Assembly (NCBI RefSeq): GCF_002694385.1
Contig: NZ_NZMB01000018.1
Location: 91,655-138,392 of the forward strand
DNA from: Sneathiella sp.
GTDB taxonomy: Bacteria > Pseudomonadota > Alphaproteobacteria > Sneathiellales > Sneathiellaceae
DNA length: 46,738 nt
Reading direction: 5' to 3'
In this document: positions 13,874 through 20,522 of the stretch, piece after piece
Layout: every line of letters starts with the position of its first letter
Position numbering within the stretch: position 1 is the first letter of the stretch
The notes under the pieces: generated by a model
Told to the model about the DNA's origin: nothing
Database searches by the model: none
Seen by the model: only the letters and a program-made list of their open reading frames with translations
Position numbers and translations under genes: made by a program

Positions 13874-16800
13874 TTAAATTGGCGAAATGGACCGGAATTT
13901 TGGCGGCATCCGGGAGGGGCGGCGGGCGGGCGCGCGCTCCAGAATATCCGCGATCCGGGACCGGGTTTCCGACGGCAGTATCAGCTCATCGGCGCCAAAT
14001 CCCTCCACCGCCTTCAGCGGGTCGATTTCACGGCGCATTTCATCAATCAGCTCCTGTCGGCGCGCCTTCGGATCGGGCGCATTCTGATAGAGCTTGGAAT
14101 AGGCCACATCAATCGACCCCTCCACCGACATTGCGCAGATTTCGGCGGTTGGCCAGATAAGGCAGGCGTCCGCGTCAAAACTGCGGCCACCGGCCATCGC
14201 CACATATCCGAGCCCATAGCCCTTGCGCAAAACGATAGAGATGCGCGGCACTGTTGACTGTCCGAGCTCGAACAGCATCTTGGCGCTGCGCCGCCCGAGA
14301 TTAGAATCCTCCGCCGGGCTGCCGATGGACATCCCCGGAATATCCACCAGATAGATCAGCGGCACACTATAGGCATCGCACAAGGCGATAAAATGCGCCG
14401 CCTTTTCGCAGGCATCCGCGTTCAACATCCCGCTCAGATGCAGGGGCTGATTGGCAATGATGCCCACCGGCCGACCCTCTATCCGGGCCAGCGAGGTGAT
14501 GATATTTTTTGCAAAACCGGGTTTGATTTCAAACACGCTCTCCGCATCGGACAGGACCTCGATCACCCGCCGCATGTCATATGATTTGCGGGTATTGGCG
14601 GGCACGATGCTTTCCAGGAGTATCTGATCTTCTGCCGCGTCCCGCGTCGCTTCGATATTTGCCGGTGCCTGCGCGTTGGACGGCAGATAGGAAAGAAACC
14701 GCTTCAGGGCGTCCAGCGCCTCTTCCTCGCTTTCCACCGCCGCATCGGCGAGACCATTCCGGTCCACCTGCCGCGCGGTACCGCCCAGATCGTCGGCGCT
14801 GATCACCTCGCCGGTCCCCGCTTTCACCAGCGCAGGACCCGCCAGCCCCATGGTGGATTTGCCTTTCACCATCATCACCAGATCGGCCATGCCGCTATAG
14901 TTGGTATTTGCCGCAAAGCCGAACCCCAGCACGGCGGACACCATTGGCACCCATCCCGTCATGCGGGAAAATGTTGCAAACAGATCCCTTGATCGCGCGT
15001 AGGAACGGGAATTCTGGCCGTCCTGAATGCGGTGGCCGCCGCCATCGAGCAGCATGACCAACGGGCAGCCATACTGTTCGGCAAGTTTGGCGATACGGAC
15101 AAATTTCTCACTGCCAAGATGCCCCGAGCTTCCCCCGTACACGGAAAAGTCCTGCGAGACGATCATCACGGGGCGGCCCTCAATCCGCGCCGATCCGGCA
15201 ACGATGCCATCGGCCGGCGCTTCACGCGTCAGGGCCGGGTTACGGATCAGGCTGCCGATTTCCTTGAAGCTGCCCTCATCACATATATAGGCAATCCGCT
15301 CGCGCGCCGTGAGAGAGCCCCGCTTGTGCTGGCCTTCAACCACCTCGGCGCGCGCCTCATCAAGAACCGATTGTCTTGCGGCGCGGGCAATGTCGATGGC
15401 CTTTTCGGTTTCCGCATCCGGCCCTTCTTCCTCCTGGCTCGTCTGCTCCATCTCTCCGGCGTCAGCAGGCTCGAAAAAATACAGCGCCTCCCCGCGCTCA
15501 ATTGTCCCCCCCTGCGAGACGGGCACCAGACGGACAATGCCGGATGTTTCCGCCGTAACGACATGCTCCATTTTCATGGCCTCGATCACCGCCACCTTGG
15601 TCCCTGCCGCAATCAGCGCCCCCTCCTCGGCTCGTATTTCAACCAGCAATCCGCCGATGGGCGCGGACGCGGCCTGCGTGCCGGAAGGGCCGCTGGCGGC
15701 CTGCGTCGCCGCTCCCTCCTCTGCTGCCGCCACGATATCTTCTCGGAACAGCCGGGGATGTTGCACCCCTGCTTTGACGATTTTCGGCGCCTGCTCCCCG
15801 ACCAGCCCGGTCGTCATCCGCCCGTCGCGCACGTCGGCAAGTTGCATCAGGCTTTGCAGAAAGCCGATATTCGTATCCAGCCCGTCAATGTGAAATTCCG
15901 ACAGGGCGCGATAGCCGCGCGTCAGAACATCCCGAAGCTGACCTGACGGGGCAAACGCAATCACCTTGGCAAGCAGTGAATCAAAAGCGGATGTCGTGCG
16001 GTAGCCCGGATAACCGAACGTCTCGACACGGACGCCCGCGCCACCGGGGGGAGAAAAGGCACGCAAGGTGCCCCCCGATGGCACGGCCGTACCGTCGTCC
16101 GCGATCTGCTCCATGTTCACCCGAAGCTGCACGGCCATACCGCGCGGGCGGCCGACCGCCACCTGCGTCAGCCCGAGTGAGGGCAGGCTTTGTCCTGCTG
16201 CAAGCCTGACCTGGGTTTGCACAAGATCAATTCCCATCACCTCCTCGGTCACGGTGTGCTCAACCTGCAAGCGCGGGTTGGCCTCCATGAAAACAAAGCG
16301 CTCTGCCGCCGGATCGGGGTCAACCAGAAATTCCATTGTGCAAAGCGTATGTATCTTTGCCGCGCGGGCAAGCGCGACGGCGGCATCGGCGATCTGGTCC
16401 CGCAGGGCCGGATCAAGCCCCGGAGCGGGCGCAAATTCGATCAGCTTCTGGTGCCGACGCTGAAGGCTGCATTCACGCTCAAACAGATGAATGACATTGC
16501 CCTCTTTATCCCCGAGCACCTGAATTTCCACATGTCGCGCAGGCCGGATCAGCTCCTCGATATAAAGCGCGTCCGAACCGAATGAAGCCTTCGCTTCAGA
16601 ACCGGCGCGCGCAAATGCCTCTTGCAGATCAGAAACCTGCTCGACAATCCGCATGCCGCGCCCGCCGCCGCCGGCCAACGCCTTGATCATCGCGGGCCTT
16701 CCGGAAAACCCTTCCATGATCCGCCGGGCGTCTTCCAGGCTGGTCGGACCGACACTTCCCTCGGCGAGTGGCACACCAATCTTTTTCGCCAACTCCCGCG

Positions 16801-20200: not shown

Positions 20201-20522
20201 CGACAAAAACAAGGCCTGCCTTCTCACAGGCCGATGCAAACTCCGCGCTTTCGGACAGGAATCCATAACCCGGATGCACCGCCCTACATCCCGCGTCTTT
20301 CGCGGCGGCGACAATCGTTTCAATATCCAGATACGCCGCCACGCCCCTGCCTGGCAACGCAACAGACCGATCCGCCGCCGTGACATGCAGGGAACCGCCA
20401 TCATCGGAGGCATGAATTGCAACACTTTCGATGTCCAACTCAGCAAGGGCGCGCGCAATACGCACCGATATCTCACCGCGATTTGCAATCAGTACAGGTC
20501 CAGGTGACAAGGCAGGCTCCAT
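17211..20522 (-). CDS. Single-chain acyl-CoA carboxylase (BC-BCCP-CT), copy 1
   Basis: A 1103-residue enzyme with the same order as its neighbour. Biotin carboxylase is at about 8-460 (VLIANRGEISVRIARA; LGGGGRGARVV about 167-176; MEVNPRIQVEHTVTEEV about 294-310). The biotinyl domain at about 498-570 has EAMKMEH with Lys533. The carboxyltransferase follows to the end, with AYDYTVFAGTQGRANHKKMDR and LCDTPGFMVGPDSEKEAAVRQ. It uses ATP and bicarbonate to carboxylate an acyl-CoA. The two copies are clearly diverged along their length, so they are likely to differ in substrate or to form a mixed oligomer. The gene is divergent from the ligase at 20759, with operator site 3 between them. No clear Shine-Dalgarno precedes ATG 20522. 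Confidence 0.92.
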   Translation of the reverse strand: MEPALSPGPVLIANRGEISVRIARALAELDIESVAIHASDDGGSLHVTAADRSVALPGRGVAAYLDIETIVAAAKDAGCRAVHPGYGFLSESAEFASACEKAGLVFVGPTPEMLRQLGDKAAARALAMRLDVPLLPGTSKPTTAEEARAFFEKAGGNGSIILKALLGGGGRGARVVHKGEDLEAAYAACASEARKAFGSAELYIEEYLPRARHIEVQILGDGQGGLIHLGERDCTLQRRHQKLVEFAPAPGLAAETRDALCRDALKMAADVAYRGAATFEFLLDADKGDRYWFMEVNPRIQVEHTVTEEVTGVDLVQAQLRIAAGETLADIGLSQDQFSKTSKFAVQLRVNMERVEASGEILPASGTLSRYDMPSGPGVRIDGFGYSGYRALPTYDSLLAKVIVSVNGSGEAGYRRLLVKAQRALRECGIGGVETNLFFQRALLAHPALAANTVFTRFIEEHTGELVASALDLQNAERPPEEQSEKPATHAIEVPPGNVAVSAPMVGYLAEVLVSEGDVIGKDQPLAILEAMKMEHLVTAPESGLVTKVLLEDGVQLDLGSAILFIDPEGGTAAEAVDAAEQSIEAIPPSLAEVIERKNMLQDEFRPDAVARRRKTGQQTARENVAAVCDSDSFREYGALVLAEQRTRRSLEELIRMSPADGLVAGTARVNSDLFPEGNSHCAVIAYDYTVFAGTQGRANHKKMDRVFNIAARDNLPLILFAEGGGGRPGDVDNIRVAGLNFSTFTMMARRSGKAPSVGIVSGRCFAGNAALLGCCDVIISTPDANIGMGGPAMIEGGGLGVFKPEDIGPVDVQTANGVIDILVEDEAEAAVVARKYLSYFQGPVDQWECADQRLLRHLVPENRKRAFDVRRVIETLCDTGTVLEIRPSYGAGIITALARIEGRPFGLIANNSQHLSGAIDSEGASKASRFIELCNAYDLPVVSLCDTPGFMVGPDSEKEAAVRQFSRFFIKAAALESPLMTVVLRRAYGLGAMAMAGGDFFVPQYAVTWPLGEFGGMGLEGSVRLGFRRELEAIEDPAEREAKYQEMVAAAYEKGKGLNVASHFEIDDVIDPEDTRRLITVMLAGHVAKPWGSVPQRYIDPW

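What the first reader, a model, noticed from the sequence alone, without database searches (positions are those of the whole stretch)
13874..20522. Tandem single-chain (BC-BCCP-CT) acyl-CoA carboxylases
Two adjacent genes each carry all catalytic parts and an intact biotinylation motif (Lys527 and Lys533). The single-chain LCC enzymes already described are homo-oligomers, so two diverged tandem copies raise the question of a mixed oligomer or of two different substrates.
Basis: partly seen in the sequence, partly recalled or inferred. Interest (0 to 1): 0.7.

Follow-up and report, generated by a model that had tools for sequence, protein, structure and literature searches.

The report
Paired single-chain carboxylases, two catalytic lineages
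A Sneathiella bacterium carries two neighbouring all-in-one biotin enzymes that attach CO2 to CoA-bound acids; they are not simple duplicates but carry two different types of catalytic end piece that recur as partners in distant bacteria, which makes their joint task testable.

Summary
Confirmed: two adjacent minus-strand genes (13874-17152, 17211-20522) encode complete BC-BCCP-CT chains with intact BC, biotinyl-Lys (527, 533) and CT motifs. They are not plain tandem duplicates. P2 is an LCC/YCC-type chain throughout. P1 is a chimera: an LCC-type BC-BCCP half joined to a CT of another lineage ("CT1"), stand-alone in 68 of 79 loci found; none of six structural references placed in a tree falls inside it. 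P1/P2 identity is 50% for BC, 34% for CT; a Sneathiella-only origin of the CT pair is rejected (p=0.00015). CT1 and LCC-type CT ("CT2") recur as neighbours: 28 of 79 CT1 loci hold a CT2, 27 of those 28 also an ACL-type ligase, and CT1/CT2 distances track each other (r=0.76, 29 pairs). Two ligases, a CaiB transferase, CT1 and CT2 form a module in Sneathiella, Sphingomonas and a Rhodococcus plasmid, with different transporters. Best reading: two self-sufficient carboxylases for different acyl-CoAs or steps of one acid-catabolic pathway. Against it: 51 of 79 CT1 loci show no CT2. A mixed CT core or carboxyl exchange is not excluded. Substrates unknown. New variant of a known kind.

The parts
13874..17152 (-). 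P1: chimeric single-chain carboxylase, 1092 aa (longest ORF 13874-17263; M38 taken as start)
15764..17152 (-). P1 BC domain (about residues 1-463), LCC-type
   Evidence: (YCC BC 5h80, 467 bits), BC trees
15455..15691 (-). P1 BCCP domain (about residues 488-566), biotinyl Lys527 in EAMKM
13877..15412 (-). P1 CT domain, CT1 lineage; GGGHRIQDG and YGLG motifs
17211..20522 (-). P2: LCC/YCC-type single-chain carboxylase, 1103 aa
   Evidence: 4rcn 1111 bits
19107..20507 (-). P2 BC domain
18813..19037 (-). P2 BCCP domain, biotinyl Lys533
17214..18782 (-). P2 CT domain, CT2 (LCC/YCC) lineage
20759..22387 (+). ACL1, AMP-forming acyl-CoA ligase-like, divergent from P2
   Evidence: best NCBIfam model below its cut-off; orthologue in S. 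sedimenti L058
22439..23536 (+). CaiB/BaiF-type CoA transferase-like
   Evidence: best models below their cut-offs
23993..25630 (+). ACL2, AMP-forming acyl-CoA ligase-like
12504..13631 (-). DctP, TRAP solute-binding protein, downstream of P1
11980..12498 (-). DctQ, TRAP small permease
10640..11947 (-). DctM, TRAP large permease
9806..10513 (-). TetR-like regulator
   Evidence: TetR-family models, all below cut-off; conserved in L058

Best explanation
P1 and P2 are two catalytically complete, ATP-dependent single-chain biotin carboxylases that work in one acid-catabolic gene cluster. In each, the BC domain carboxylates the biotin on its own BCCP and the CT domain passes the carboxyl group to an acyl-CoA. 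P2 is an LCC/YCC-type enzyme. P1 has the same kind of BC-BCCP half but a CT from the CT1 lineage, usually a separate subunit elsewhere. The two CT types are kept as partners with two acyl-CoA ligases and a CaiB-type transferase, so the most likely task is carboxylation of two different acyl-CoAs, or two steps of one pathway, each enzyme as its own oligomer. Shown: domain content, intact motifs, two CT lineages, recurrent linkage, correlated divergence. Inferred: activity, separate oligomers, distinct substrates. Unknown: the substrates.
For: Full domain sets and intact motifs. P2 matches LCC 4rcn over its whole length (1111 bits) and YCC CT 5fif (620 bits). The CT1 profile scores higher on 7w5u, 12S 1on3 and PCC chains than on 4rcn or 5fif. 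CT1 (48 rows) and CT2 (35 rows) are separate clades (SH-aLRT 98 and 100, quick tree); holding the six Sneathiella CTs together costs 465 log units, p-AU 0.00015. P1-type BCs form a 14-row clade (100/99) that includes three chains carrying a CT2 (L067, L068, L035), i.e. a CT swap on one BC type; a clade of CT1 chains alone is rejected, p 0.006. 28 of 79 CT1 loci have a CT2 in the flanks, 18 of 45 with full flanks, against 11 of 79 for all other CT types together; 27 of these 28 have a ligase of 45% or more to ACL1/ACL2, against 44 of all 79. CT1 and CT2 distance matrices correlate, r 0.757 over 29 pairs, 0 of 5000 permutations reach it; thinned to 17 pairs r 0.54, 0 of 5000. The same set occurs in two Sphingomonas loci with MFS and TonB genes and on a Rhodococcus opacus plasmid, where CT1 is a separate gene followed by its own BC-BCCP gene beside a complete CT2 chain. 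There each CT type comes with its own BC and BCCP.
Against: 51 of 79 CT1 loci show no CT2 in the flanks (many contigs are short) and ten LCC-chain loci read show no CT1, so the pairing is frequent, not obligatory. Correlated divergence partly reflects shared organism history; no housekeeping gene was used as control. With 74 rows the BC tree does not reject P1 and P2 BCs as one Sneathiella clade (p 0.237); with 38 rows chosen later it does (p 1e-07). Some clusters (L114, L115, L116, L118) have one small BCCP, CT1 and CT2 and no BC in view, which fits a shared or mixed complex better than two separate enzymes. No substrate evidence.
Confidence: 0.55

Rival explanations
1. Mixed oligomer: P1 and P2 assemble into one particle whose CT core contains both CT types, so that hybrid active sites form at CT1-CT2 interfaces or one type regulates the other.
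For: The two CT types are linked and diverge in parallel. Precedent for a mixed CT core in split enzymes: six PDB entries of a mycobacterial complex contain AccD5-type (24 chains) and AccD4-type (12 chains) CT subunits together (9yx2 title), and PMC4347857 reports reciprocal AccD4-AccD5 interactions (passages). Clusters with one BCCP for two CTs.
Against: Both CT types keep both half-site motifs, so each can in principle form its own dimer. CT1 and CT2 differ by 66%. Six of ten fused CT1 loci show no CT2 in their flanks (one of them, L096, is a short contig whose genome has the CT2 chain on another contig). In R. opacus each CT type has its own BC-BCCP.
Confidence: 0.22
2. Carboxyl exchange: one CT works in the decarboxylating direction on a substituted malonyl-CoA made by the ligase or CaiB enzyme, and the carboxyl group is passed through biotin to the acyl-CoA bound by the other CT, or recovered as ATP by BC.
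For: CT1 profile relatives include the 12S transcarboxylase subunit and P1 CT scores 392 bits with the methylmalonyl-CoA decarboxylase model, below its cut-off of 999. BC-less clusters with BCCP, CT1 and CT2 exist. Acid uptake genes (TRAP, TctC, ABC) are common neighbours.
Against: P1 and P2 both keep intact BC domains, which a pure transcarboxylase does not need. The tree puts the 12S reference with PCC, not with CT1. Genomes with BC-less clusters have BC genes elsewhere.
Confidence: 0.1
3. Plain tandem duplication with redundancy or mere divergence.
For: Same architecture, adjacent, same strand; BC 50% identical; the 74-row BC tree alone does not reject it (p 0.237).
Against: CT lineages differ and their union is rejected (p 0.00015); P1-type chains have closest relatives in Sphingomonas, Chelatococcus, Camelimonas, Xenophilus and an Alcaligenaceae strain rather than in P2.
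Confidence: 0.04

Closest known systems
[quoted passage not shown] source organism recalled)
   Same: Single chain BC-BCCP-CT; P2 matches along its whole length. P1 matches 4rcn over 41-1104 (675 bits) and its BC half is of this kind.
   Different: P1's CT lies outside the LCC/YCC clade. Paired, linked single chains are not described in the passages I saw; the LCC paper itself was not held.
Propionyl-CoA carboxylase beta / transcarboxylase 12S / 7w5u CT subunits
   Same: Highest profile scores for the CT1 lineage among solved chains.
   Different: In the tree these references group with the genome's own PCC, away from CT1. CT1 and CT2 share GLG where PCC has GGA, and a hydrophobic residue where PccB has the specificity residue D422 (position recalled; alignment).
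Mycobacterial AccA3-AccD4-AccD5 long-chain acyl-CoA carboxylase (PDB 9t97, 9yx2 and others)
   Same: Two different CT types used together in acyl-CoA carboxylation.
   Different: Split subunits, shared alpha subunit; here each CT is fused to its own BC and BCCP.
Multidomain ACC SACE_4237 of Saccharopolyspora (PMC6491548, passages)
   Same: Bacterial single-chain carboxylase.
   Different: Much larger (about 200 kDa), with a eukaryote-like central region; CT of another group.

Membership tests
LCC/YCC single-chain acyl-CoA carboxylases (P2) | BC, BCCP and CT in one chain of about 1100 aa | tested here: met
LCC/YCC single-chain acyl-CoA carboxylases (P2) | CT inside the clade of 4rcn and 5fif | tested here: met
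   (CT2 clade, 100)
LCC/YCC single-chain acyl-CoA carboxylases (P1) | CT inside the clade of 4rcn and 5fif | tested here: not met
   P1 CT is in the CT1 clade; joining the Sneathiella CT pair rejected
LCC/YCC single-chain acyl-CoA carboxylases (P1) | BC-BCCP half of LCC type | tested here: met
   inside the 63-row single-chain BC clade (100/99), apart from the genome's PCC/MCC-type BCs
LCC/YCC single-chain acyl-CoA carboxylases (both) | Homo-hexameric assembly; activity on C2-C16 acyl-CoA with preference for long chains (as told in PMC6491548) | not testable with these tools
   needs purified protein
Propionyl-CoA carboxylase beta (P1 CT) | CT groups with characterised PCC chains | tested here: not met
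   1xnw, 1vrg, 1on3 and 7w5u fall with the own PCC, outside CT1
Transcarboxylase or decarboxylase (P1 and P2) | No BC domain | tested here: not met
   both have a full BC with intact motifs
Mixed-CT carboxylase | Two CT types in one particle | not testable with these tools
   only single-chain prediction was available; linkage and parallel divergence are indirect

The most novel reading that the evidence does not exclude
The CT1/CT2 pair defines a 'two-CT' kind of biotin carboxylase: both CT types act on one shared flow of carboxyl groups, either as a mixed CT core or by passing the carboxyl group from one acyl-CoA to the other through biotin. It exists as split subunits sharing one BCCP (for example L114-L118) and has been packed into two partner single chains in Sneathiella and Sphingomonas.
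Probability: 0.2. Interest if true: 0.75.

Novelty: new variant of a known kind. Interest (0 to 1): 0.5.

Why it matters
It shows that the CT end of a single-chain acyl-CoA carboxylase can be exchanged for one of a different lineage while the BC-BCCP half is kept (in both directions, judging from L067, L068 and L035), a natural experiment on how substrate choice is changed in these enzymes. It also gives a defined CT family (CT1) with no placed solved structure and no substrate, a recurrent partner (CT2), and a compact five-enzyme module whose substrate can be found by genetics in culturable bacteria such as Sneathiella, Sphingomonas or Rhodococcus opacus.

Tried and rejected
Dead CT: no motif loss seen. 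Recent tandem duplication: rejected for CT, undecided for BC. CT-CT fusion protein in the own genome: one search listed open frames of 1141 aa for two CT matches on C18, but translation shows two stop codons between them; they are two genes with a small BCCP gene between. Structure models: P1 mean pLDDT 73.5, pTM 0.51; Foldseek put 4rcn first (E 6e-92) but with TM 0.37-0.40 and rmsd 32, so domain arrangement was not reproduced; the P2 model (pLDDT 62) was not searched. Both had shallow alignments (11 and 8 rows). Substrate from neighbours: CaiB and ligases match their best NCBIfam models only below the cut-offs, transporters differ between loci, so no substrate was assigned. Literature: ten searches; none of the papers listed there was seen to describe such a pair; five papers were seen as passages only; the LCC paper was not held. 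Two of three clade tests did not finish; one (CT1 chains alone) was done on 38 rows, the other (Sneathiella and Sphingomonas tandem BCs together) was not repeated.

Rows dropped before counts: 222 CT and 100 BC stretches gave 180 and 76 distinct; BC rows of 400 aa or less and the L014 copy were left out (74 rows); the reference tree used 106 rows chosen by locus out of 181 plus 5 references; searches used 55 and 38 rows chosen after the first trees were seen; L097 and L128 were left out of the 29 pairs as the same genomes as L058 and L061. The genome-contig scan kept the best 80 of 151 relatives (79 loci), so counts over 79 are for the nearest relatives only. CT1 and CT2 were assigned by identity (over 46% to P1 CT; 40% or more to P2 CT).

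Full report
What is there. Two adjacent minus-strand genes encode complete biotin-dependent carboxylases. P2 (17211-20522, 1103 aa) lies upstream of P1 (13874-17152, 1092 aa from M38; longest ORF to 17263), 58 bp apart. Each has BC, BCCP and CT domains. BC and CT motifs are intact in both.

Surroundings. Divergent from P2 run an acyl-CoA ligase (ACL1), a CaiB-type CoA transferase and a second ligase (ACL2); downstream of P1 lie TRAP genes DctP, DctQ, DctM and a TetR-like regulator. The best NCBIfam models for the ligases and CaiB fall below their cut-offs, so no substrate follows from them. The whole block is conserved in one relative (L058/L097, Sneathiella sedimenti) and, on separate contigs, in G013/L096. 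The genus name is inferred: G021 is given as same genus, and its contig C4 has the same length as the S. sedimenti contig of L097. In the 24 genomes of the genus searched, P1 is found in 3 (over 1900 bits; next full-length match 1144 bits), and a stand-alone CT1 in one more, G008.

Two CT lineages. P2 matches LCC (4rcn, 1111 bits) and YCC CT (5fif, 620 bits). P1 matches 4rcn with 675 bits, and its BC half the YCC BC 5h80 with 467 bits. A profile of P1 CT and seven relatives scores best on 7w5u (501 bits), 12S 1on3 (473), 1vrg (466) and PccB 1xnw (458); 4rcn (356) and 5fif (339) come later. In a 106-row tree CT1 (48 rows, SH-aLRT 98) and CT2 with LCC and YCC (35 rows, 100) are separate clades, joined to each other (98), while 1on3, 1vrg, 1xnw and 7w5u fall with the genome's own PCC (quick tree, midpoint root). 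So none of the six placed references is a CT1; the other PDB matches were not placed. P1 and P2 are 50% identical in BC, 43% in BCCP and 34% in CT. Forcing the six Sneathiella CTs together costs 465 log units (p-AU 0.00015).

Chimera. In the BC tree P1-type BCs of fused CT1 chains form one 14-row clade (100/99) that also holds three chains with a CT2 (L067, L068, L035). Keeping the eleven CT1 chains as a clade of their own is rejected (p 0.006, 38 rows). So the CT was exchanged on this BC-BCCP type at least once. Whether the BC halves of P1 and P2 are themselves a Sneathiella duplicate is rejected with 38 rows (p 1e-07) but not with 74 rows (p 0.237); I take the careful-tree support as favouring separate origins and leave it open.

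Recurrent partners. A scan of named genomes with the CT1 alignment gave 79 loci (best 80 of 151 kept). CT1 is a stand-alone ORF in 68, fused to BCCP in 1 and to BC-BCCP in 10. A CT2 lies in the same locus in 28 of 79 (18 of the 45 with full 10-kb flanks); 51 show none. Other CT types together occur in 11 of 79. A ligase of 45% or more identity to ACL1 or ACL2 is present in 44 of 79 loci and in 27 of the 28 with CT2; a CaiB of 48% or more in 24 of 79 and 11 of 28. CT1 and CT2 distances correlate (r 0.757, 29 pairs, 0 of 5000 permutations; 17 thinned pairs r 0.54, 0 of 5000); shared organism history was not controlled for. Both CTs are single chains in L097, L102, L106 and L109. In the two Sphingomonas loci P2- and P1-type genes are adjacent in the same order, with ACL2, MFS, TonB receptor, ACL1 and CaiB genes and a LysR regulator. 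On a Rhodococcus opacus plasmid the order is CaiB, ligase, CT2 single chain (1063 aa), TetR, MFS, CT1 (521 aa), BC-BCCP (582 aa), ligase: the parts of P1 as two genes next to a P2-like chain. Its BC-BCCP is not of the P1 BC clade. In L114, L115, L116 and L118 a small BCCP gene precedes CT1, with CT2 nearby and no BC in view; the complete genome of L115 has 7 BC and 15 CT matches, two of the latter partial, so BC is presumably supplied in trans. L144 has BC, BCCP, CT1 and CT2 in one locus.

How it works. Most likely each chain carboxylates its own biotin with ATP and bicarbonate and hands the carboxyl group to an acyl-CoA at its CT; the two CT types serve two acyl-CoAs or two steps of a pathway fed by the transporter, the ligases and the CaiB enzyme. 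For separate enzymes: both half-sites intact in each CT type, own BC-BCCP for each CT in R. opacus, fused CT1 chains with no CT2 in the flanks in 6 of 10 loci, and ten LCC-chain loci without CT1 (L067, L068, L070-L077). For a mixed core: linkage, parallel divergence, one BCCP for two CTs in some clusters, and the precedent of AccD4 with AccD5 in mycobacteria. Carboxyl exchange is possible but less likely because both BCs are intact. LCCs are reported as homo-hexamers active on C2-C16 acyl-CoAs (PMC6491548, passages); nothing here tests oligomer or chain length. Both CT types have a hydrophobic residue where PccB has D422 (residue number and role recalled), which argues against a PCC-like pocket but does not give the substrate.

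Novelty. P2 is a new member of the LCC/YCC kind. P1 is a new variant: single chain, LCC-type front, other CT. The pair as a conserved unit was not seen described in the ten literature searches named under Tried and rejected; open-licence papers only. Score 0.5: a specialist would find the CT exchange and the recurrent pairing interesting, but activity and substrate remain unknown.

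Noticed in passing
own genome G000:C18, locus L078 8244-16261: Another two-CT set, in split form: CT (519 aa), small BCCP (ESMKM), CT (536 aa), fused TRAP-like gene and BC in one stretch with three CaiB-like genes; the two CTs fall in different clades and are neither CT1 nor CT2. S. sedimenti has two adjacent CT matches at G021:C2:244711-247966.
   Followed up: partly
L162 9944-13125 and L156 9935-13169: Two CT1 genes in tandem beside a CaiB gene in marine Rhodospirillaceae bins.
   Followed up: no
L115 genome (Kordiimonadales IMCC3096): 15 CT matches (13 full, 2 partial) against 7 BC matches: many CTs lack a BC of their own.
   Followed up: no
window 25862-30617: A second acyl-CoA cluster next door: enoyl-CoA hydratase, AMP-binding ligase, IclR-type regulator and acyl-CoA dehydrogenase.
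   Followed up: no
window 8358-9425: APH-family phosphotransferase gene beside the TetR-like gene, also kept beside it in S. sedimenti L097 (74%).
   Followed up: no
L178 16281-17687 (Rhodococcus opacus PD630 plasmid): HpaB-like gene (below the model's cut-off), alcohol and aldehyde dehydrogenase genes next to the CT1/CT2 module; could hint at the substrate class.
   Followed up: partly
window 13874-20522: P1 and P2 have higher G+C (0.615, 0.606) than the window mean (0.566) and the TRAP genes (0.528).
   Followed up: no
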